From: Botryllus schlosseri
Taxonomy: Eukaryota; Chordata; Ascidiacea; Stolidobranchia; Styelidae
Length of the DNA stretch: 21,788 bases
Assembly: GCA_000444245.1 (NCBI GenBank)
Contig: ATSW01073490.1
Span: 1-21,788, forward strand
Reading direction: 5' to 3'
Positions 256 to 21,577 of this stretch are shown here, piece after piece; positions within the stretch are counted from its first letter, which is position 1; each line of letters opens with the position of its first letter. Position numbers and translations under genes: made by a program. The notes below the pieces were generated by a model. The model did not search any database, was not told the DNA's origin, and worked only from the letters and a program-made list of their open reading frames with translations.

Positions 256-690
256 AGGGTGTGGACCCAACACAAACAAATGGTACGGCTCACTGAGAGA
301 GGGTTACGTCATTCTCTCCATTTGACAAGGGAAATTTATTGCACCATTGAGACAGGCTTGCCGAGTGAGAGATTGGATAAAAATCGGAATCAATCAAAAG
401 CTACCGTAGTACTTATAAAATTTATTCTGCTCGTGACCCTGGAACCCCCCTAAAATCTGTGTCGAGCGTTGCGTTGTGCTGGTATTTGGCATAGTGACGT
501 AGCTCAGGAGCAAGTTAGCAGTGTTCTCCCGATGAGAGACGAGTTAAACCCGTTCACGGCACGCCAAACGCCCCGCTGTGACTGAGTATCTAAGTGGCTT
601 GTGAACGGGTCGTCGGAATCTAGGCCATGAATGTACTTTGATTAATAAAGATATGTGCTGATGTGAAACCTTTACTGCTCGCCGATAGAA
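256..690 (+). mobile_element. Possible solo LTR (family not determined)
   Basis: The stretch begins near TGTGGACCC, has a TATA-like CTTATAAAAT about 413-422, a hairpin (ACCCGTTCAC at about 548 pairing with GTGAACGGGT near 600) and an AATAAA at about 643-650, an order that fits an LTR with U3, R and U5. No primer-binding site, polypurine tract or coding part is seen, so at most a solo LTR remains. Ends and target duplication are not certain. It lies in the expected last intron of gene A. Age cannot be judged from one copy. Confidence 0.25.
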
Positions 691-752
691 GTAACCGGGA
701 ATTAGCCTACTTAGCCTTGTAAGTATTGCAATAATTTAGAAAATGTGCATAC

Positions 753-3411
753 AAGGAATTCCAAGGACGTTGGCTTCATTTTCGGAGATGTCGTCAGCAA
801 AATATGGCTCTTCAGTGGGTTCCGTGATGACTTGAGAGTGAGAGCATTCGTCGAGGAGATATATTTGAGGAAGGTTTGACTCGATCCCAAGCATGGCATT
901 CACGGATGCTAATTGTACGAAGGTGAGAGCTTCAGTAAATTCTGAAAATAAATGTTCAAAATATGGTTAGGTGTTTTATATTCGCGCATTTACGTTCGAT
1001 TCGCCCGAATTATATTTACACATAACTATATGTTCTCAGTTTTATTAGAGAGTGCTTATAGTCAGAGGGGCATATGCCAGGGTTGACATACCTACCTCAT
1101 AATAAGAGAATAATAATTGTCTACCAATCTACCATACAAAACTTTTTCATCAAGAAATACTACGCCTATACATAAAACAATCAGACAAGATTCGAACAAT
1201 ATATATCTGTCTCCATACACGAACTTACCCATAGGACCCCTGACTCTGGCAGTCCGCATTCTATGGTACAGATCGCTAGTTTTCCCGTTCCATATTTTTT
1301 GATCTGAGATTTCTTCAACGAAGGTGGCGGGAGTGTCATCGCCGAGATCTGTGGTTATAAACCATCAAAACTCTGTAAATATGAAGTCTAGCATATGCCT
1401 GCTAATTAGGGATGAACACTGACTCGGGTACTCGAATCTGAATCGAGTATTAATTTTAATCATTCAAGTCACGTAGCAAAAACCGAGTTTTTCGAGTACT
1501 GGAATTATACGCTTCTCGACACTAAAAGCTATTTTATCGACGAGAATTAAGGTTTCGATACTATTTTCCACTGTGGAAGCCTCGAAACCTTGTTGATTGG
1601 CCGTATCGCAGCATACGAAACATAGTACAGAGTTACGAACGTTACTGGAAATAACACATTTCCGAACTCATGATACTCCCACAACATTGACACAAAGTGA
1701 ATTGAGATCGGTAGGGTCAAAATATTACCAAAGTATCTTTACAGGCAATACATTCTTTGTGGTGGCATAAAAGGGACATATTTGAACCTTGACATTTTAT
1801 AAACTGGTATTACGTCATAATGAGTGATACTCGAATACTCGACTCGAAGCACGGTGCGTGATTCAGAATCCAATCACTCAGGTACTCGATTTCGCTCAGC
1901 ACAGACATGCCACTCCTGGGATTTTCCACCCAGATCAGGTTTTTTTAGCATCACCTGGGTTTCTGGGTTTTTGTCCTTGAAATCTGTTTTTTTCGACATT
2001 ATGATCGTCAGGTCAGTTTTACGATCGAAAATTAATTGTTAGGTTAGTAAGATCATAATATTGTGAAATGCACGCACTTTTATTCGTCATTATCGATGCA
2101 TTTCGCTGTTATTGTACCGACATAGTAACGGGAGACTGTTTCACTACTAAAATGAGAGGCCTCGGCGTGATGTAACGGTGCTTCATTGCATGATAACATC
2201 CGGGTTGAAGAAAGTCATGCTTATAGGGAAACTCATTGCAGTCATTGGAAACGTTGTTTATAATTTAAAACGATTTATGACTTGAATGCTAGTATCATTC
2301 CAACAAATTCGTCGTGTAACGATAAATAACATGTTACCTCATGGTATGCACATGACATATGGATATAGACCAGGCGATAATTCTTCTCTGATTCCATTTA
2401 GTTCACATTAACACAGAGACACCCCCAGCAAGCTATTCAGTGGCTATAGTTGGTCATCAGCACATTGACTACACCCTGAATTTCATGATTTGGCAGTTAT
2501 GGCAGTTCTTTGTCGACAAACATGGGTCTGTGTCATTATCCCAGATAAACGTGATTGTCCCGGGATCAATTGGCCAGGTCACTGAAAATATACGAAAATC
2601 ACCCACAGAAACAGGGAATGGATGGAATTCTTGCGAAGTTTCTAAGCGCAATGATATAATTAATGCATTACTAAGTATTGAAGCCGCGCACCAGTCGAGA
2701 AGAAAGCGACATATTTTTGTGGGATTTTTCAGTGTTAACCGAGTAAAATGTAGAGTATGAACTGTTGGAAATTCAGTCTCAATGGCTCCTATGACTGTAG
2801 GATGACCGTCGGGTCCCAGTTTCATGGCTATGTAATGTCACTTTAAGTGAAATATAGGATCTGGGTTTTTCTGGGTTTATTTGGCCTCCACATCTGGGTT
2901 TTTCCGAAATATCCCAGTGGCATCCTGCTAATATCCAAGCATTTGCATTGTTGAGATGGTTTTTTCAAATGTACGCCCCTCACGTACAGCAGGATTTTAC
3001 GGCCGTGACCATCCAGTCGTCCAATTTGTCTCATTATAGCAAACATAATAAAATAATACAGATTCGATTTTTGACACCTGTCAGTTATTTGTCCTACCCG
3101 ATCAACATAAGTCTATATCTACAACGTCATGGGCACCAAACACACGTTTGCTATATACACGAAAACATCTCAAGTTTCTGTATAGAGCCTACGGGACAGG
3201 TCATGGTCTCACCAGGATCGACGAATACAGTTTTGAACAGGCGGGATTATGACACTCTGCGGTTAACAGAATTGGTGAAAACATAAATATCGTTTCAATA
3301 TAAAAGGCAATCCATCAGCAGCGACTCACCTGGCTCCGCAAATGAAAGAAAAATCATGCTGCATATCACGAAGTAGAGTTTGTAACCTTTAGATCTCATA
3401 GCAATAGACAT
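753..3411 (-). CDS. Gene A: tandem paralogue of gene B, 3 of 4 exons in window (3' partial)
   Basis: Seen: exons 3411-3330, 1348-1229 and 941-753, all with GT-AG ends and phase-1 junctions, encode 131 residues so far. Exon 1 is a signal peptide (KLYFVICSMIFLSFAEP). Exon 2 carries FVEEISDQKIW, matching YEEISDHKIW of gene B. Exon 3 carries AMLGIESNLPQIYLLDE, matching DMLRIESHLPEIYLVDV, then TEEPYFADD. Exon lengths differ from B by 9, 24 and 18 nt, all multiples of three, so the reading frame has been under selection. An in-frame ATG 12 codons upstream (3447) would add MKLIFFVVLYER; I prefer 3411 because it is conserved in B. Intron 1 holds a composite hAT insertion (1410-2925). The exon 4 counterpart is not found down to position 1 and is expected beyond the left edge, past a possible LTR in intron 3. 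Family unknown; whether A is still functional cannot be told without exon 4. Confidence 0.7.
1410..1901. mobile_element. hAT-type MITE, family 1 (copy 1)
   Basis: It starts TAGGGATGAACACTGACTCGG-like and carries many ACTCGAATC/GAGTACTCG blocks near both ends. It is the reverse complement of the copy at 7607-8121 over nearly its whole length, at roughly 80% identity by eye. No transposase is encoded. Confidence 0.75.
1410..2925. mobile_element. Composite hAT-type insertion in gene A intron 1
   Basis: An 8-bp repeat CTGCTAAT lies at 1402-1409 and again at 2926-2933, the size expected for hAT target duplications. The paralogous intron of gene B has a single CTGCAAAT at this place, with flanking sequence matching on both sides. 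The insert consists of a 492-bp MITE (1410-1901) directly followed by a second hAT-like element (1902-2927). The two ends of the composite belong to different families. Confidence 0.65.
1902..2927. mobile_element. hAT-like element, family 2 (non-autonomous)
   Basis: Left end CAGACATGCCACTCCTGGGA and right end, read inverted, CAGGATGCCACTGGGATATT form imperfect terminal inverted repeats, followed inside by CCCAGAT and CTGGGTTTTT blocks on both sides. It has no target duplication of its own. ORFs of about 106 and 118 codons on opposite strands (2440-2825) show no transposase motif. Confidence 0.6.
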
Positions 3412-3850
3412 GCGCTCATAAAGGACGACGAAAAATATCAACTTCATAAACGCGGCCCAAGACCGTTGGTTATTACATTTTCATATCGCGAAAAGCTGTG
3501 ACGCGTGCTTAGCCTACATCCTCTTCCGCGATACGTAATTTACTCTTGACGAAGCGCAGGATGTAGACCTACGTACTCTACGATTGAGGGCCAAGGCGAT
3601 AACTTATGGTTGAAGCTTCGTAAGCGTACAGCCCACCGTTATACGCATAAAAATCCAGAGGTGTTCTAAGTAGCCCTTGTTGGTACTCAAGCAGAAGTTA
3701 CCGACGCAAACTTAATTACAAGTAGGCTACCTATTTCCAAGTGAGTAAAAAGTAAATAGGCTACTGTAGTTTTGCCTAATGAACGATAACTGTGAAGTAA
3801 AAGTGGTGTAAAATCATAACCACTCGAGTAAGTAGTGTAAGAAAGCGTTT
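3412..3850 (-). promoter_or_regulatory. Duplicated 5' flank of gene A
   Basis: This stretch upstream of the gene A start is conserved with 13454-13890 upstream of gene B, including AAAAGCTGTGACG, CCTACATCCTCTTCCG and CTCTACGATTG blocks. It probably holds the 5' UTR and promoter, but no initiation site can be fixed. A TATATA-like stretch lies near 3876-3882 (minus strand). Confidence 0.4.
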
Positions 3851-4162
3851 AACCTATTAGCGTACTCCCCAAAGGTATATAAGTATATCCTTATCGTCCA
3901 GTCTCCAGTATCCACATTTCTACACCGTGAATCAGTGATTCCCCAACTGTGTTCCGTGGCACAGTGGTGCGCCGCCACAGAATCTCAGGTGCGCCGCTAG
4001 TCTTTTTGGGATTTTGGAAGAACACTGCGCAATATTGAATATTCAGGCATGCAGACAAGTAGATGCGACTAGAAAGCGGTCTAACTCCTACAGCGGGCCG
4101 ATAAATCAACCCATATGACCATTTCCATGAGCCTAGCGTTGCATAGCATTGCCGATGAATAG

Positions 4163-4279
4163 CAGGGCTTTGGACCCGGTGCCGGAGCCCCGGAGTCATG
4201 CATTTACAGCGGAGCCGGAGCTGGAGCCGGATCTCTGCATAAAATTCAAGTGGAACCAAAGCCGGCGCTGGAGCCGGTT
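4163..4279. repeat. GC-rich GGAGCC-type repeat
   Basis: Degenerate GGAGCCGGAGC units stand out against AT-rich surroundings. The first bases CAGGGCTTTGGACCCGG resemble ends of some hAT MITEs, but no second end or target duplication was found. Positions 4280-5046 hold nothing I can support. Confidence 0.4.
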
Positions 4280-5046
4280 GTTTGGAATGTATCTTCGGCT
4301 ATGTATTCCACAATATATAATGCTATTACTTTAATTATAACGGGAATCCTTCACAAAATTAAGAATTGTTGCCTCCTATAGGCACCCCGTTTTCTAACCA
4401 TGTTCAATTGTTCACATAGGCGCCTTGCTGAACATGTCGATTTGGAGGTGAACACGCCGCGAAACACGGTCTCCTCTCTGAATTAGACGAGCAAATGAAC
4501 TTTCTCAATTGTTAGTTATTTAATCGTAGCTCGTAATTCGACAGTGTTATGCCTACTAATTGAAATTGACTCCAGCGCATGATCGTTTACTCTAGTAATG
4601 ATTTGATTTGCAAGCTTCAAAGGAAGATGCATAAGAGCCGGCCACAACGTCACTTTTGTCGAGATGCGAGCTAGTCAATATAAGAATTACATTTGGTGAT
4701 TAGATGAGCGCTTTCCAGTTTGTGATCATCAGTTTTGTGCATTCAAAATTGTCTGCTTGATACACTCGTAATCTATTGGTCACACAATGTCATTTTCGTC
4801 ATGTAGTTCAATTTGTTACTGAATCGCCGTTTTCGCCCAAATTTCGGGATGTCTCCTTTCAAACGCTATCCCGTGATAAATGCAATACATGTTTTTTTTA
4901 TCGTTTGGACTGAAATAAAATGCCGTGTCCGAGATACCCTGATTGGAAACCGACGATATGCGGGCATGTCGGCGACAATGAAACATCGTTTCATTGGATT
5001 ATATGTTTATATAAAAAGCATAGTCATCGCATTAACACGTAAATAG

Positions 5047-6003
5047 TAGGGATGGGATGAACCTCTGAAAGGTTCATGTTCGAGTGAACGCGAACCTTTT
5101 TGAAAGGTTCCGTGTGAACGCGAACATGAACCTCTTGACGTCGCGTGTCGTCATATTGCTAATTCTAAACCTACATTTCAGTGCAGTGATATATATTAAT
5201 GTACACGATACCTAGCGACGACTCGTACCACTTTTTAAACGTCGCAAAATGTATCAACTGCTGGAGCAATCAAATGATATAATAATCCCACAAAATCAAT
5301 ATCTTCCGTCGCTTTGCCAGCAATTTCGACGAGGAATTGTACGGGAATATAAGCTTACGCCTTAAACGGTCTAGGCAAGCCCGAACATTGTATTCCGTGT
5401 CTGAGTGTTGCTACGTTGATATTAAGCAGAGTGTAAAACCGGTTTTACCCCATGCACAAGGTATACAGCAGTAGCCAACACCTCAATCGCAGTGATTTGG
5501 TTTTTATGATGCAATAAACATACGAAATCGAGATGGACCCCGTATACGCTTGCTAGATTTTTTTTACATCACTCAACGATATCAATTTCCTTGATTGGTT
5601 GAATAAGCATCTTCTGCTGACTACCTACAATGTAGTGTATTTCTCTCTTGATGTTGTGAGGTTTCAGGTCAAGCTTACATCAGAAAGTTACTAAATATCC
5701 ACTAACAGAAAGCTGGATATTTCGAGAAAACTTTTGTAACAAAGCAGTTAAAATGTTTGAGATTGTCAAGATTCATGCTCGTTTAGTGTTGATTTTTAAT
5801 GCTGCCAGCGCCGTGCCTAGAGTCGCCCGAATGAAAACGCATTTAGTTTCAACCAAAGATGTTATAATGACGTGAAAATTGTAATATATGAAAAAGGTTC
5901 ACAGTGCAGAACCTATCAAGGTTCGTTTGTGAACGTGAACCGCTAAATTTCCGAGGTTCACACACAGAACGCGAACGTGAACCTCACGCTCACACAATCC
6001 CTA
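5047..6003. mobile_element. hAT-type MITE, family 3
   Basis: The ends are TAGGGATGGGATGAACCT and its inverse-like ...CACACAATCCCTA. Subterminal AGGTTC/GAACCT blocks occur in both orientations near each end. Flanking octamers GTAAATAG (5039-5046) and CTGAATAG (6004-6011) agree at 6 of 8 positions. It is 957 bp long with no coding capacity. Confidence 0.75.
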
Positions 6004-6219
6004 CTGAATAGATTTGTTACGATTCGTTCTTGTAAGTTTGCCACGAGCGGTATATAATTTTTTTAGTGTGCTACAACAAGCCCATGCAGAAAGTTTGGGA
6101 GCCACTGCCATAATTGGATAAAACCTGTTTCATAATTAAGTTTAGATATGAGCCATCCTGTGATAGCGCAATTCACCGTAAACAGCTCAGAATTTATAAT
6201 AATTCGTAATATTCTAATG

Positions 6220-7022
6220 CGGGGTTGGGCAACCTGCGACCGTGGACCGGTAATTAAATTATAGCATGTATTTGGTGGCCCTCGACGTGAAAATACAATT
6301 TACGAATTGACTCCAGCATTTTTGAGAGAATAATTAATCTTTGAGATATTTCATTAATCTTGAAATTTTCTTCATCCTGACCACGATTCAATGCGACTTC
6401 ATTTTTTGATTTCAATTTAGTAGCGTCCTGTGCAATCTAAGACCCAGAGTACAGATGCGACCGGCGGAGGAGAATTATGCACCCGATATAGAAATAGCAA
6501 CATGGAATCGTGCATTCCTCACGAAAAAAATTAATTTGTTTCTGGTAGGTTTGGGAGATTCCAATATCTTACCACTATACCGACAATCCTGACTGGAGAT
6601 CAAGAAATAACAGCACGCAACTAAGTGAATAATAACAATTGGTCCACCCGAATATGCATCATCATTTATAATTTGGCCTATATTTTCGAAAACACTCCCT
6701 CCAACCACTGTACCGGTGAATCTGATCACATAGGCTGAGAAAGAATAAAGATTTGGTTAACTCTACTAAATTCTTGCTTCGCGCGACCATAACCACTCTC
6801 GGTCGCTATTCGTTACATGACCACCAGCTATTTCCATGCGTATAGTAAGACGATATGAAAAAGTAGATTAGTCCGAAGTTCACCGGAAATGGACATTGTC
6901 AGTCTAACATGAATATTTGGTGTCTAATTGGTTCATTGCGACTATGTCCAGGAATGCAGCCGTAGGCTACATAAGTATAATTGAAATGCGGCCGTGAATA
7001 GCAAATAAGTTGGCCAACCCTG
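6220..7022. mobile_element. hAT-type MITE, family 4
   Basis: Left end CGGGGTTGGGCAACCTGCGA and right end ...TTGGCCAACCCTG are imperfect inverted repeats. Flanks TTCTAATG (6212-6219) and TTCTAATT (7023-7030) agree at 7 of 8. It is 803 bp; the ORF at 6475-6729 (minus) shows no transposase features. Confidence 0.75.
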
Positions 7023-7030
7023 TTCTAATT

Positions 7031-7606
7031 CTATTGTCTCACTGCTTTCAAAGATATATAATATATAATATTAATGTCAACACATCATCTAAACCCCTCA
7101 AAATCACCAAGGAATGTTAAATTCGAATTCGTTACGTATACTTACAGCGCAAGGAAACAATAAGCAGGTGAAGCACAAATAAATTGACTTCACTCTTTGT
7201 TGGCTAACAATCCGGCAATCGCAGAGCAGGGATGCAATGCGCTTTTGACTTGCAAACCGATGTCGCAGTAAGAATCGTGTAGCTGCGACAGCCAACATGT
7301 AGTGCAGAGCAAATTTAATTCCTTACTGGTGTAGCTGTTATGTATTTTCCATTCACACCTGCCTTCTATTGTCGCTATGTATAGTATCTTCTTACGTATG
7401 TAAAGAATGCTAATGTGATGAAGAAAGAAGGCGCTAGCTGAATCGGCTAGCATTCTGGGTTTGCATTCTACATTTGTGTATCTGATATTAAAATAAGTTA
7501 AAGCCTCGCAGACCACGAGTCCCCACTGCACGTCACTGTAAAATACTTCCAGGGTCCGGTTTCATACCGCGTTCAGTCTGTTTGCTTGTCACTGGTGCGT
7601 TACAAC
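7031..7606. other. Intergenic, no gene found
   Basis: Two overlapping minus-strand ORFs (64 and 113 codons) lie here in different frames. Neither has recognisable motifs, splice partners or support from the duplicated unit. Confidence 0.5.
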
Positions 7607-8121
7607 TAGGGCTGGGCAAAATCGAGTACCTGAGTGATTCGATTCTGAATCACGTATTATGCTTCGAGTCGAGTCGAGTATTCGAGTATCACTCATTATG
7701 ACATCATAACAGAATGGAAGATGTCAATGCTCAAATATGTACCTTTCTGGCAACCCGAAAGAATATAATGCCTGATATCCATCACATTAAAGATACTTTG
7801 GTATTTTTTCGACCGTACGGATTTCATCGCACTTTTTGGCAATGTAGTGGGATGGTCAGGACTTCGGAAATCTGTTATTTCCAACAACGTTCATAGCTTT
7901 GTACCATATGTTTCATATGCTGCAATACGCCCAAGTATGTTTCAAGGCTTGCCCAGTCGATAATAGTACCGAAACTATAATTCTCGTCTATAAATAACTT
8001 TCAGTGGCGAGCAGCGTATAATTTCAGTACTCGAAAAAATCGCATTTTACTACTCGATTCGAATCATTAAAAATATCACTCGATTCAGATCCGAGTACTC
8101 GAATCCTTATGCCCGCCCATA
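7607..8121. mobile_element. hAT-type MITE, family 1 (copy 2, inverted)
   Basis: It begins TAGGGCTGGGCAAAATCGAG and ends TATGCCCGCCCATA, good hAT termini. The interior matches 1410-1901 in reverse orientation. Flanks GTTACAAC and GTTGCACG agree at 5 of 8. It retains the full right end that copy 1 has partly lost. Confidence 0.8.
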
Positions 8122-8420
8122 GTTGCACGACATAGTTCGTTCTATATTTCGAGCAAAACGCGGATTATTTTTAAAACCAAAAGTGAACCACTACTACATG
8201 GCGAAACTTCAAAAGTCCCCCTAGTCAAAGTTTCACTACAGTATGTCGCACGGTACCTATAAACCACCTACTTGTAGATTCTATATTCCACAGTCATTTC
8301 CGAGGGCGAATACTTATTCGACGCACACCTACACTGATTTCGCAACCCAACATAAAATGTACAATGGCGAAGTGGGAGTGTAAAACCGGATGATCAAGTT
8401 CGAAATTGGCATCGAGCTAC

Positions 8421-8426
8421 TTTATT
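8421..8426 (-). terminator. Polyadenylation signal of gene B
   Basis: AATAAA on the minus strand lies about 104 nt past the gene B stop codon, a fitting 3' UTR length. The 8122-8420 stretch further on holds no gene I can see. Confidence 0.5.
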
Positions 8427-8529
8427 AAAATATATCAGGCGATATCCACACAGGCCTACTCAAAATAAACATGCACGCCAGTGTAGATTTGGAACTATCC
8501 ACACCATATTGATCTCCCGGGTCTTCTGC

Positions 8530-11500
8530 TCACACGGCGACAGAGGTAGGACCGGATTCGCCAACGAGTATGGTACCCCAATATGAAGGATTGGCAAGTG
8601 TGGTTTTCATGACATACAGCTTTACCGGCACTGTTACATGGAAATATATTTAGTTATTAACATGAATAAGCTGCAAATTCTATTCAACTCTAGGTAGAAC
8701 TTTGTGTAACGTAAAATATGTGCAATATATTCAAGTTAAATTCTTGAATAGGAGATTGGAGTTGGATTACCGTACCGAATCGTTATTAGTTACTACTTTT
8801 CGTATCGCTTTTCTTGTTAATCAATTAATCACTCCAGAGCATATTTCAGCTTTCCCGCGTTAGATTAAATTTAGAATTGTATATAGCTACACAGTTTTTC
8901 CGTACAAGATTCGAATTAGAAATATTGAATATGCAAATGCTTGGAAATCGAATAAAATTCGGAATTAGAAAGAAATACAACAAACATCAAGTTCATTTCA
9001 TATCAAATCAGAATTCCTTCTCGTGAACATGAGGATGGCAAATCTCTGTGCACTGAACTTGGCTCATTTTGGTCTATATATACAATTCTCGTGTAGGATT
9101 TCAGAAAAACCGGAAATTATATTACAATAGGAGAATATGGAAACAATTCACAGATTATATTACAATATTTTTACCGACTTCGATCTAATGAGTATAATTT
9201 GACAACTATAGAGTTTTCCTAGTCTGAATAGGCAACGCATAAGGCTGGCAGACCGAAGTGACAGGGTATTAAGGCTTGTAAGTATTGGAACAATTTAGGA
9301 AATGTAGATATCCTACCATTCACTCCAGCCACTCTGCCTCCGTCCCAGAAGCTTTCATGAGCAAAGTGCGGCTTCTCAGTCGTTTCCGCGGGGACTGGAG
9401 GGCCTACGTCGACGAGATATATCTCAGGAAGATGTGACTCGATTCGAAGCATGTCATTCATACATGCTAATCGTGCCTCAGCGAATCCTGCCAAGTTGAA
9501 AATATGGAGAGTGTTTTACGTTCGCGAATTTACGTTTAAATCGCGTGACTTCTATTTCCACAGAACTACCCACTCAATGTTATTGCTGAGCGCAGAATTT
9601 GTTTCGAGTACTGAGATACTTCGTTCTTTTGCCACCAAAAGCAAATTTATCAGCAGTAATAATAGGTCCAATGATATTTGCACTGAGGAATCCTTTACAT
9701 CAGTGGTTCTTAACCTTGCCACCAGCGCCCCCAAAGGGGCGCTGGCGATTTTGAAGGGGGCGAAAATGCTCTGGGGGCGCTGAAGAAAATTGCCTTCGCA
9801 GTAGATGATGTGGTAGTAGGACACATCCTTAAGGAGTATTCAGAACAAATGAACGTCACAGAAAACATGTCAAATCCCGACATTTTTGGTCGCGCTACGC
9901 GGCGATGTTTGCTACATATGCTTTCGTGAATGTACTGGGGTAATATAATTCATATAAAACAAATTGCGCGTACTTTAAGATCGCCAATTTTTCCCTTATT
10001 TAAAACACTGCCGCCACGCTTGCTAGGGTTATTTTCAACAAAATGTTTCGAATTAGGTATCCACAACGCACAGCGTGTGAAAATCGAAGAAGGAGGCACT
10101 ACATATCACTTTTGATTGAGAGTGAGAGCTCCCAGTACATAACATAAGTTTTGAAGCTTTGTGCACGAAATGAATAACTAGATATACTTGTATTTGAGAG
10201 CTACAAAATTAAACCGTCAGAATATTTCTTCATCATATCATAAAGGATGATACTATCTCGTGTTGTGGTTCACAACCTCACATGAACGTTATACAATATG
10301 AGTTGATTTGTTCGGAATACATTCATGTTAAAATTAATGACTGGGTTCAGTACTAAATTCAATGTGAGCAGGTATATGCATCCGATTCTCAGTTGACTTA
10401 CTTATAGTTACACAAAGCAATAAGACAATATCCGAACGACAGGATATATGAAACCGTACCCGATTGTTGTTTTAACAACCTCGATTAGACCCTGAATATA
10501 CCAATTATTACATATTATTATATGGTTTATTATAGTCGAATGGTCCCCGAGCGCGACTTAAGCGCGAAATATTTCCAATACCCAAGTTCGTCAAAAAGAT
10601 CGTCAGCGAGAAAACCTTAGCCGAAGAGGATTGCCCTTATATTGAGCGTAAACTTCGATGTATATAAGTCTAATAGTCCATATGTGGTTAAATCGCTCGT
10701 GCCGAATTATCATGTCGTCGCAATCTGCACCCCACAGGACAAATAACATCGATCACAAAAATTATATGCCGATGACGAAATACCAATTTTGAATCGTGAG
10801 CTAACTTTAGTTCAATACGTTTATTCGTTTCAATATCTTTTGACTATATCGCGGACAAGAGGTAACAAAATAACATGTAACGATTTAATTGTACCAACGG
10901 GCATGCCCGAATATGTTCAAATATTAATTACGTGGCATTCATTTTCCTATGCAACAACTCACTCAGCGCTACTGGTAAATCTGATTTATAGTGTCATATA
11001 TATATGCATTATGCAATTACAACCTATTTTATTCATGCATTATAGAAAACTTTGGCTCCAGGGCGAACAGGCCACATAAACTTAGCTGACCATCGGAATC
11101 ACGCGACGGGGTTCTTGGGGGCGAAGCCCACACAAGTTTGGTCTATCACGCTATGGGTGACCAGGATAATCATTTGTTTAGAGGGGCTGACGAAGTGCTG
11201 TTACGGCCCTCCCATCACCCATTGTCTTTATTACAGTCCTTACAATATGAGGTGGGGGCGCCGGAGCACGATATTTTTTTAAAGGGGGCGCTGGAGGAAA
11301 AAGGGCTAAGAACCACTGCTTTACATCTTCCCTATGTTTAATTCTACTATGACCTCAAACTGAAGGATACTCGAATACTTGACCCGACTCAAAATACGAA
11401 ATAGTAAATACAGTCAACTCTGCCTAATTCGGACACCGGATAACCCGGACAACCGGTTTATTCGGTCAAAATGCTCGGGAACGGAAGAAAAGTTGAAATT

Positions 11501-13453
11501 GCACGTAAAACACCCCGGCAAATTGGACAATTATTCGCTTAATTCGAACACAGTCTCGCAATTTCTATCATTTAGTTTTGACGGGATCGATAACTTCGTT
11601 CGTTTTAAGACGAGTGATTATGGTGAAATAAAGGCTATCCATGCAGTAACAATCCACAATGAGCTCGTATAAGGTCGTGCCAGCATCTAAGGACTCGCTT
11701 ATTCGAGACCATTACGTCCATCTTGCAGAAAAGATTGGTATAGAAAAGTTAGATTTTTTGGCTACTGCTGTTGAAGCAAATGCGGTATCATAATACAGTT
11801 AATCAAACTTCATTTGACGTGACTTCCTATTTCTGACACAGTCACAGAGTAAACGTATGGGCCTATGGAAGTATTGTGTTTTGTGGATTTAGATTTCAAT
11901 TAGCGTTGATAGCTTTTTCATAAATAATTTACTGCTCTCCTATAACTTTTTGAATTTTATTCCCACCGTTTCTTGGAGTAGATTTATGAAGTAAAAATAC
12001 CGTTTCTGCCCCTCCTGTTGATGGCTTGCTACCATATTTGAAGAATTTCTGTAATATTTTAGGCCCTACTGTATCTATTATACCAGGGCTGGCCAACCTT
12101 TTTGGCCAAAGGGCCACATTCGATTGACGAACTATCACGCGGGCCACTATCCGCGCGAAGCGCGAAAATTTTTCGAAGTTCATAGGTCAATAATATTGTC
12201 ACTTGACTGTATTGCGGGCCTGCTGTATATCGCTGGACGCAGTTTGCAAGGACTGGACTATTCGGCGCTTGGACATATCGATATCGAAAGCTTCGACCAA
12301 CATGCATCAATCATTTCGTGCCTATATAGGTTTTATCGTCGACGGTCTTTCTGCTAGCGCAAACGCAAGTTCGTATATGTTGAACGACACTTTGTCTCGT
12401 AATCGCGAATATAATTAGACCCAATCTGATACAATAGACGTTCTTTCATTTTCACGAAGGGGTAACAATATTTAAAGCAAGAAATCGAGTGACAACATGT
12501 TGCGCGAAACGTGAAAAAAAAATTTTCTTTTGATAAATATATCTCAAATTATTCTGCTTTATTGTAGTGTACGAAGTTCTACCAAAATATGACAAGCCCA
12601 TGGATCTGCCAATGCGTCGGAACTGATATTTTGGTCATCACATCTCAAGTGTTGCGGCCAGACTAATCAAATTTTTGATTGGCCTCGCAAGTTCACAATC
12701 TGTAGAATCCATTTTGTATGATATTACAAATTTCGGATATTACCTCGCGGGCCACTCAAAACCTTCTCGCGGGCCACATGTGGCCCGCGGGCCACGGGTT
12801 GGCCGGCCCTGTATTATACAATGATACCGTATGCAGTATCTGTTGAATCGCTTGATGTCGAAATCTTGTACATACAACTAACCTGGAGGTATAACTCTCG
12901 TACGTTTTACGCTGGTCTCCCCCGCAGGCCATATTTTGTGATCTGAAATTTCTTCATAGAAAGCGCCAACTTCTAGATCTATGATTTTAAAACATTGAAA
13001 TGTTGTACGTATAGTCTAGCCTGCAAATTTATGTATTTGTATTGTGTGAGACATCTTTCAAACGTGCTCAACGCCCGCACAGAAAGATGTGAATTGTGAA
13101 GGCCGCGACCACGAAATCGGTCGTTATTGCTCATCATAGTGAGCAAAATAATACACGTTGTTGACAACAATCAGTTATCTACGGTCCCGGTAAGCACAAA
13201 TCTACCTACAACGACATGGGCACCAATTGCTTTCGTGCTATATTCACGAAATTATCTTCAGTTCCCTTCTTGGTTAACAGAATCGGTACGACCTAGTACG
13301 GTATACCCATAGCCATAAAATATCATTGAATTATAAATGGCAACCAAACAGCAGCGAATCACCTGGTACAGCAATTGAAAGTTTCGAGACAAGACTCACG
13401 CTGCATATCATCAAGTGGATATTGTAAGATTTACCTCTCATAGCGACTGACAT
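8530..13453 (-). CDS. Gene B: unrecognised secreted or membrane-targeted protein, 4 exons, complete
   Basis: Seen: minus-strand exons 13453-13363, 12978-12883, 9487-9317 and 8630-8530 (stop TGA) join in frame with GT-AG ends, all introns phase 1, giving 152 residues. Exon 1 encodes a signal-peptide-like start (hydrophobic stretch IHLMICSVSLVSKLSIAV). Exon 2 carries FYEEISDHKIW and a dibasic KR (SVKRTRV). Exon 3 has a helix-like FAEARLACMNDMLRIES followed by LPEIYLVDV and an acidic/Pro stretch. Exon 4 carries PVKLYVMKTTLANPSYWG and ends GPTSVAV. An AATAAA lies at 8421-8426, about 104 nt past the stop. Few Cys are present, so a disulfide-rich fold is unlikely. No known domain was recognised. 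The start is the ATG conserved with gene A; the frame is open further upstream. Intron 2 (3.4 kb) is swollen by transposons. Inference: extracellular ligand, peptide precursor or recognition protein. The exon structure is well supported by the paralogue; function is unknown. Confidence 0.75.
8631..9316 (-). other. Gene B intron 3
   Basis: The intron runs from donor GTAGGA (9316) to acceptor TAACAG (8631). AT-rich; no further exon or repeat stands out. Confidence 0.6.
9601..9692. mobile_element. hAT MITE family 1 (copy 3, first part)
   Basis: TTTCGAGTACTG...CCACCAAAAGC...CACTGAGGAATCC matches the left half of 1410-1901. The copy is split by the hAT insertion at 9701-11318 and resumes at 11327. 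It appears internally shortened. Confidence 0.55.
9701..11318. mobile_element. hAT element, 1618 bp, nested in MITE copy 3
   Basis: The ends CAGTGGTTCTTAACC and, inverted, CAGTGGTTCTTAGCCC form terminal inverted repeats. A perfect 8-bp target duplication CTTTACAT lies at 9693-9700 and 11319-11326. Subterminal GGGGGCGC blocks occur at both ends. The longest ORF (10789-11079, plus) shows no transposase motif, so it is non-autonomous. Confidence 0.92.
11327..11404. mobile_element. hAT MITE family 1 (copy 3, second part)
   Basis: GGATACTCGAATACTTGACCC and neighbours match the right end of the family-1 MITE. Its own terminus is cut off by the Tigger-like fragment starting at 11411. Confidence 0.55.
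11411..11560 (+). mobile_element. Tigger/pogo-like terminal fragment
   Basis: CAGTCAACTCTGCCTAATTC next to a TA dinucleotide, followed by GGACACCGGATAACCCGGACA-type repeats, is typical of TcMar-Tigger ends. A matching far end was not found, so it looks truncated. How far it extends past 11560 is unclear; 11561-12075 shows nothing assignable. Confidence 0.5.
12084..12811. mobile_element. hAT-type MITE, family 5
   Basis: The ends CAGGGCTGGCCAACCTTTTT and ...GGGTTGGCCGGCCCTG are inverted repeats, with GCGGGCCAC blocks near both. A perfect 8-bp target duplication TATTATAC lies at 12076-12083 and 12812-12819. It is 728 bp with no transposase, inside gene B intron 2. Confidence 0.92.
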
Positions 13454-14484
13454 GCGCTCACACAAGACCGCATCAAAATATCTACCATACTGTATACATT
13501 TACTTCTTTGGACGCAACACAATACCGTTGGTGATTTCATTTTCATATCATAAAAAGCTGTGACGTACACCTACATCCTCTTCCGAAAACGTAATTTACC
13601 CTCGGCGTAGATCCGGATGTACGTAGCCTACTCTACGATTGCGGGCCAAGGCTAATTTACAGGCAAAGATTGGTATGCATTACAGCCTACCGTTATATAC
13701 CCTTCAGCGGTGGTCAAACCTGTTGTTGTTGGTACTCAGGTGAGAATTTAGCGTCGATAACTCATGCACAAGTGGCAATTTTCAAGTAATTAAAAAAGTA
13801 CGTATTCTAGGCCTAGTTTTACCTACAAAACTGATAACTGTGGACTAGAAGTGTCCAAAATCATAATAACTTGACTGATTATACTGCCAGTACGCAAAAC
13901 CTACCTGAGACTGAGCTGTAGTTCGCTACTGAATCCCACTGTCAAAATCTACCTTCCGGAATACAACGACATATCCATATAACACCATAAATGAATAAAA
14001 TGTGCTTCATCAAAGACAACGCCAAGTTTGATAATAAAATATATTTTATTCAGCAGTAGACATTGGACGCGTAAGTAGGCGAGCAGTATATATATAAATA
14101 GAATAACAAAAGAAGTCCGCAAAATCTCCCAGTGTCGCACTATACCTGAAACGTGTCGAAAAGCGCCAGACAGTATAAGACAAAAGGGTTAGTAACAGAT
14201 CAGTAAAATGAGCTCATTAACACGCGTTCTAAGTTACGCCGATATGCGGACCATATCGGAAATGAAAAAGCGACCGGGAATGAACCTTGTTGGAATCCGT
14301 TGACAGTAATACCGCGCAGGCAATGCTTAACGTAGCCAATCCTAAACCATGGATATCTCATTTATGTATACTATCAGCAAACGGAATCCGTGGCAGAACG
14401 GGAATCGTCAAAAAAGAAGAACATCAAAATTAAAGAATAAATAGAATCAGCAACGCATAGCGCACGGCGACACAGTGTTCCAGC
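13454..14484 (-). promoter_or_regulatory. Gene B upstream / MORN5 downstream region
   Basis: About 13454-13890 is the conserved counterpart of the gene A 5' flank. From 13890 to 14484 no gene is seen; it should hold the MORN5 3' UTR (possible AATAAA near 14045) and any distal gene B promoter. Confidence 0.45.
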
Positions 14485-17926
<3,442 letters not shown>

Positions 17927-18373: not shown

Positions 18374-18560
18374 GATATACTATCTTCTTTTACTTTTTAT
18401 TAGGTGTGCATGCCTCCTCTTTACATCACCTAGGCCAAGGTGGGTGTCTGATTCCATAGACTACTCCAAGTCGCTTCGACATCTTCCTATCTTTTCATTG
18501 TATGGCATTTTTGTGGTGTATGGAACTGCTAAAACTGCTAATAAACCAATGATGATGATG
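18374..18560 (+). mobile_element. LINE 3' tail fragment (copy 1)
   Basis: From CTATCTTCTTTTACTTTTTA to AATAAACCAATGATGATGATG it is nearly the same as 19866-20074. It is 5'-truncated and holds only 3' untranslated sequence ending in a short ATG-repeat tail. Confidence 0.75.
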
Positions 18561-19643: not shown

Positions 19644-20041
19644 CATAAAGCTACAAGCGATGGATATGAAGTGGCATATTCCAGACCTGATGTGTGGAAC
19701 AGTATCCCGCCGGCCATCCGACAGTCGACGAGCATGTCCACATTCAAGTCGAAATACAAGCAATTACTATTAAATAAATACAGTCCATCCTCAAGATTAC
19801 CGGACCACGACTGAGCTATCGATCTCGCTTCCCATTACGTGCCGCCCTATTCTTGTCGCTTTCTTTTTCTATACTGTCTTCTTTACTTTCATTCAGTGTG
19901 CATGGCTCCACTTTACATCGCCTAGGCCAAGGTGGGTGTCTGATTCCATAGACAAATCCAAGTCGCTTCGACATCTTCCTGTCTATTCATTGTATCGCAT
20001 TTTTTGTGGTGTATTGAACTGATAAAATTGATAATAAACCA

Positions 20042-20074
<33 letters not shown>
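19644..20074 (+). mobile_element. LINE 3' end with reverse transcriptase C-terminus (copy 2)
   Basis: The frame at 19644-19814 encodes SRPDVWNSIPPAIRQ and STFKSKYKQLLLNKY, the C-terminal signature of CR1/L2/Jockey-type reverse transcriptases, then stops. The 3' untranslated part matches 18374-18560 and ends in AATAAACC followed by a GAT/ATG repeat (20042-20074). The element is 5'-truncated. Confidence 0.8.
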
Positions 20075-21055: not shown

Positions 21056-21446
21056 AGCAGAATAGGACCTTGGCTCCTGTCTCTCGATGGCTTGGTGACG
21101 ATATGCCGTTAAGTGTATTCTAAATAGTGATTTTGAGAGTGACTCCGCAAAACTGAATGACATTGAATGTTCGCAAAAATGTGCGTGCGTACAAGCGTAA
21201 TTGATCCCCGCAGATAATTAATTCGAAAAATATCGAAACCCCCCTACATTTTCAACTGGCTGCGTGCCTGATCACGTGAATTAGAGCGAGGTATCATGTC
21301 GGCATCAATTCCAGTATCGGCTAGTCGTCTTTTTAGTATTCCAAACCTAAACATAAGAATGGTCAAAAGGAATGTAAAGTCGTTGAAGTATCCGGGATAC
21401 GACCTGTCAACCCGTAGACTCTCTACGAAGCGCTGCTTACTATTCA

Positions 21447-21577
21447 ACCCACTTCTGTGGAAGCTGAAAAAGCATTCAATGAACGTGGACTCTTTATTAC
21501 AAAATTCCGGTCCCGGCTATAGGATGCCACAATTGATGCATCTGTGCTTTATAAAGAGGGCGTTGCAGAAGCAGTGA
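21447..21577 (+). pseudogene. hAT transposase C-terminal (dimerisation) remnant
   Basis: The frame reads TSVEAEKAFNERGLFITKF then RSRL, a stop (TAG at about 21505), then DATIDASVLYKEG, ending before TGA-type stops further on. This matches the hAT C-terminal dimerisation region (TSVxSERxFSxAGxxxTxxRxxL). The rest of the transposase is not recognisable in the element, so it cannot be autonomous. Confidence 0.75.

What the first reader, a model, noticed from the sequence alone, without database searches (positions are those of the whole stretch)
753..13453. Undescribed tandem pair of secreted-protein genes (A and B)
Two four-exon genes on one strand encode signal-peptide proteins of about 150 residues with no domain I recognise. 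They share exon order, uniform phase-1 introns and motifs EEISDxKIW and MLxIESxLPxIYLxD. Reading frames are preserved in both, with exon length differences of 9, 24 and 18 nt. B carries an internal KR site and ends GPTSVAV.
Basis: partly seen in the sequence, partly recalled or inferred. Interest (0 to 1): 0.8.

Follow-up and report, generated by a model that had tools for sequence, protein, structure and literature searches.

The report
Tandem pair of orphan secreted-protein genes
Next to a conserved sperm-tail gene (MORN5), an animal genome carries two copies of a small, fast-changing gene for a probably secreted protein that matches no described family searched here; it is a believable new gene pair of an ordinary kind, and its job is unknown.

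Summary
The tandem pair is real. The copies share about 400 bp of upstream DNA and exons 1, 2 and 3 in the same order (E=2e-55, 6e-5, 1e-26). Coding status is well supported: open frames, phase-1 introns in both, 4 of 4 internal exon gaps multiples of three against 0 of 16 in non-coding flanks, omega about 0.56 (0.34-0.95). Corrections: A has three exons, not four. B's fourth exon (GPTSVAV end) rests on a weak donor, has no counterpart beside A, and is only possible. The upstream block is as conserved (74%) as exons 1 and 3 (71-77%) and exon 2 less (51%), so a kept promoter drives a fast-changing product. No match in Pfam, NCBIfam, PHROGs, PDB sequences or viral contigs; exon 3 gives only one low-confidence helix. 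Much of the long introns is hAT/pogo-like non-autonomous transposons. The upstream neighbour is a complete MORN5 orthologue, so the source is an animal. No eukaryotic sequence collection was searchable, so 'undescribed' means only 'not in these libraries'. Function is inferred: a small, acidic, cysteine-poor secreted protein, possibly cut at a basic cluster shared by both copies.

The parts
3412..3827 (-). Gene A upstream block, alignable with the same block of gene B (74% identity); includes a TATA-like GTATAAC about 230 nt before the ATG
   Evidence: BLAST, alignment
3330..3411 (-). Gene A exon 1 (82 nt; start and candidate signal peptide)
1229..1348 (-). Gene A exon 2 (120 nt; EEISDQKIW, basic cluster RMRTAR)
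736..941 (-). Gene A exon 3, last coding exon (MLGIESNLPQIYLLD; stop TAA at 738-736)
421..426 (-). AATAAA, candidate polyadenylation signal of A
13454..13874 (-). Gene B upstream block, homologous to that of A
13363..13453 (-). Gene B exon 1 (91 nt; start and candidate signal peptide)
12883..12978 (-). Gene B exon 2 (96 nt; EEISDHKIW, VKRTR)
9317..9487 (-). Gene B exon 3 (MLRIESHLPEIYLVD); open frame continues to a TAG ending at 9219 if not spliced
8530..8630 (-). Gene B possible exon 4 (ends GPTSVAV, stop ends at 8530), followed by AATAAA at 8426-8421; unproven
14488..17926 (-). Neighbouring MORN5 orthologue, five coding exons; context, not part of the pair

Best explanation
A and B arose by tandem duplication of one small gene together with its promoter, downstream of MORN5 in an animal genome. 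Shown by sequence: homologous upstream block and three coding exons, shared phase-1 splice sites, frame-keeping indels, weak purifying selection. Inferred: each makes a short, acidic, cysteine-poor protein that enters the secretory pathway through the exon-1 leader and acts outside the cell as a lineage-specific ligand or effector. The protein diverges at least as fast as its promoter, so the expression site would be kept while the product changes. Cutting at the basic cluster at the end of exon 2 (RMRTAR in A, VKRTR in B) could release the exon-3 part (ML.IES.LP.IYL.D); this step is a guess.
For: Homology blocks E=2e-55 and 1e-26. Gap lengths inside exons 9, 9, 12, 6 against 16 non-coding gaps, none a multiple of three (P about 2e-4). 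All 349 aligned exon columns are in the same codon phase in a plain nucleotide alignment. omega 0.56, bootstrap 0.34-0.95, and fewer amino-acid changes than random placement of the same substitutions (P 0.003-0.009). No stop in either copy, about 3 expected if neutral. Hydrophobic leader in both. pI 4.2 and 4.9, with 2 and 1 cysteines after the presumed leader. Upstream identity 74% against 51-77% in exons.
Against: No transcript evidence and no orthologue outside the window. The omega interval nearly reaches 1 and is helped by the protein-guided alignment (0.64 from the plain nucleotide alignment, against 0.75-1.12 in non-coding frames). The leader of B carries an internal K and its exon-2 acceptor is weak. 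The exon-3 fold is not predicted with confidence (pLDDT 52).
Confidence: 0.62

Rival explanations
1. One copy (more likely B) is a decaying pseudogene or has lost its original end: a 5-nt insertion at the end of exon 3 broke the ancestral C-terminus, and 'exon 4' is chance.
For: The 5-nt gap lies at the proposed B donor and shifts the frame relative to A. Exon 4 has no counterpart beside A. The B donor is the weakest of the set.
Against: Upstream of that point B keeps frame, splice sites and weak constraint; no stop in 119 codons.
Confidence: 0.22
2. The pair belongs to a known but fast-evolving extracellular family (for example a neuropeptide precursor, cytokine-like, gamete or immune effector family) too divergent for these libraries.
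For: Leader, phase-1 exons and a basic cluster fit such precursors in general; the two copies themselves share only about half their residues.
Against: No hit at E<=10 in Pfam or NCBIfam, none in PHROGs at E<=1, and only one chance-level PDB hit for B (E=0.11). No cysteine framework and no repeated amidated peptides in the sequence.
Confidence: 0.25
3. The exons are non-coding conserved segments or transposon remnants and the frames are chance.
For: Non-coding flanks are as similar as the exons.
Against: Frame-keeping indels, no stops, splice signals retained in both copies, no further copies in the window.
Confidence: 0.08

Closest known systems
Taxonomically restricted (orphan) small secreted-protein genes in tandem arrays of animals
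   Same: Short, leader-bearing, cysteine-poor products; tandem copies; divergent protein under shared flanking sequence
   Different: No orthologues could be sought here, so the restriction itself is untested
Neuropeptide/prohormone precursors (general class)
   Same: Leader, short length, basic cluster that could be a convertase site
   Different: No repeated or amidated peptide; the candidate cleavage site differs between copies (KR in B, RTAR in A)

Membership tests
Any Pfam, NCBIfam or PHROGs family | Profile match above threshold | tested here: not met
   No family for A or B: Pfam and NCBIfam up to E=10, PHROGs up to E=1
Protein with a solved relative | Significant PDB sequence match | tested here: not met
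   A none at E<=10; B one chance-level hit, E=0.11
Prohormone/neuropeptide precursor | N-terminal signal peptide | tested here: inconclusive
   Hydropathy only; no signal-peptide predictor
Prohormone/neuropeptide precursor | Conserved dibasic cleavage sites flanking a conserved peptide | tested here: not met
   KR in B only; A has RTAR in a shared basic cluster
Lineage-restricted secreted gene | No homologue outside the lineage | not testable with these tools
   No eukaryotic genome or protein collection available; viral contigs negative
Protein-coding paralogue pair | Frame-keeping indels, open frames, dN/dS below 1 | tested here: met

The most novel reading that the evidence does not exclude
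A and B found a new family of secreted precursor proteins in which a conserved promoter and an N-terminal EEISDxKIW pro-part are kept while the released exon-3 peptide diverges, as in rapidly evolving signalling or recognition factors.
Probability: 0.15. Interest if true: 0.5.

Novelty: new member of a known kind. Interest (0 to 1): 0.27.

Why it matters
If real and expressed, it is one more family of animal orphan secreted genes, with a tandem pair whose promoter is at least as well conserved as its product. That makes it a handy case for studying how such genes arise and diverge. It does not change any general picture.

Tried and rejected
Own-genome search: no genome held. Rfam and tRNA scans: nothing. 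Profile, PDB and PHROG searches: nothing. Scan of IMG/VR with the exon-3 alignment: pattern matches only, no relative. Literature search for the motifs as text: none. AlphaFold of exon 3 (two-row alignment): one helix, residues 3-17, mean pLDDT 52.5, pTM 0.19; too poor for a fold search, so none was run. Search for a third copy in the window and for an exon 4 beside A: none. Species not identified: the MORN5 match only shows it is an animal; a tunicate or other invertebrate deuterostome is my guess from short ancestral introns and repeat style.

Full report
Observation. On the minus strand two copies of one gene lie head to tail. BLAST of the window against itself joins 713-1028 with 9272-9568 (E=1e-26), 1290-1392 with 12929-13020 (E=6e-5), 3050-3176 with 13145-13263 (E=1e-7) and 3285-3827 with 13318-13874 (E=2e-55), in the same order and orientation. 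A is 135 aa from three exons (3411-3330, 1348-1229, 941-736). B is 119 aa from three exons (13453-13363, 12978-12883, 9487-9317) plus, if the fourth exon is real, 33 more to a stop ending at 8530. All introns are phase 1 and begin GT and end AG.

Is it coding? In a plain nucleotide alignment the gaps inside exons are 9, 9, 12 and 6 nt. The 16 internal gaps in aligned upstream and intron sequence are 1, 2, 5 or 19 nt; none is a multiple of three (exact P about 2e-4). This count of 16 includes the 5-nt gap at the end of exon 3, which lies just past B's proposed donor but inside A's last codons; leaving it out gives 0 of 15. Gaps touching block edges were left out. All 349 aligned exon columns keep codon phase. 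omega is 0.56 (0.34-0.95), with 58 amino-acid changes against 67-68 expected from random placement, and no stops against about 3 expected. The nucleotide alignment gives 0.64, lower than the two other frames (0.78, 1.20) and than the three frames of aligned non-coding sequence (0.75-1.12). The evidence is good but not overwhelming.

What is odd. The 400 bp upstream block is as similar (74%) as exons 1 and 3 (77%, 71%), and exon 2 is the least similar (51%). With synonymous divergence near 0.65, the upstream block looks constrained. So regulation seems kept while the product drifts or adapts. A TATA-like GTATAAC/GTATATAAC is shared about 230-250 nt before the ATG (read from the alignment).

What is wrong in the finding. 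A has three exons. Its sequence downstream shows nothing like B's exon 4. B's last donor is the weakest, sits at a 5-nt insertion relative to A, and the homologous A sequence runs straight on to a stop. Exon 4 is helped only by an AATAAA about 104 nt past its stop. Reading through would end at 9219 after 32 more residues. Both ends are possible.

Introns and transposons. B's intron 2 (3395 nt) holds two elements with inverted ends and perfect 8-bp target duplications (9701-11318, CTTTACAT; 12084-12811, TATTATAC) and one with TA flanks (11411-12071). Without them about 390 nt remain, near A's 287 nt. A's intron 1 holds similar repeats. The exons themselves are in none.

Surroundings. Upstream on the same strand is a complete MORN5 orthologue (17926-14488), residues 1-172 aligned end to end with a solved MORN5 (E about 1e-80). 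Mouse MORN5 was identified as a male germ cell gene whose protein sits in the sperm tail, and is also found in human sperm (PMC5526581). Co-expression with A and B is not implied.

Function. No library recognises the proteins. Hydrophobic leaders, acidic cysteine-poor mature parts and a basic cluster at the end of exon 2 in both suggest small secreted proteins, possibly processed. Exon 3 begins with a predicted helix of low confidence and the rest is unstructured in the model. Mechanism beyond secretion is a guess.

Verdict. A real, probably coding tandem pair of orphan secreted-protein genes, an ordinary kind in animal genomes, with two details of the gene models corrected.

Noticed in passing
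14488-17926 (-): Complete five-coding-exon MORN5 orthologue (174 aa), well conserved with solved MORN5 proteins.
   Followed up: yes
9701-11318, 12084-12811: Non-autonomous hAT-like elements with inverted ends CAGTGGTTCTTAACC and CAGGGCTGGCCAACC and perfect 8-bp target duplications, both in B intron 2.
   Followed up: partly
11411-12071: Pogo/Tigger-like element (CAGTCAACTCTGCC...GGCCCTACTG) flanked by TA, in B intron 2.
   Followed up: partly
1421-1900 and 7611-8105: Inverted pair of one 0.5 kb TCGAGTA-rich repeat, 78% alike; one copy in A intron 1, one between the genes.
   Followed up: partly
3933-6107 with 5047-6003 inside: Element with ends CAGTGATTCCCC...GGGAGCCACTG, apparently interrupted by a second element with ends TAGGGATGGGATG...CAATCCCTA.
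   Followed up: partly
18376-18560 and 19870-20053: Two 90% identical copies of about 185 bp of what looks like a LINE 3' end, tailed by ATG repeats; upstream of the second a frame reads RPDVWNSIPPAIRQS.
   Followed up: no
21430-21530 (+): Remnant that looks like the hAT transposase C-terminal dimerisation region (PTSVEAEKAFNERGLFITKFRSR); read by eye, no Pfam match in the one frame tested.
   Followed up: no
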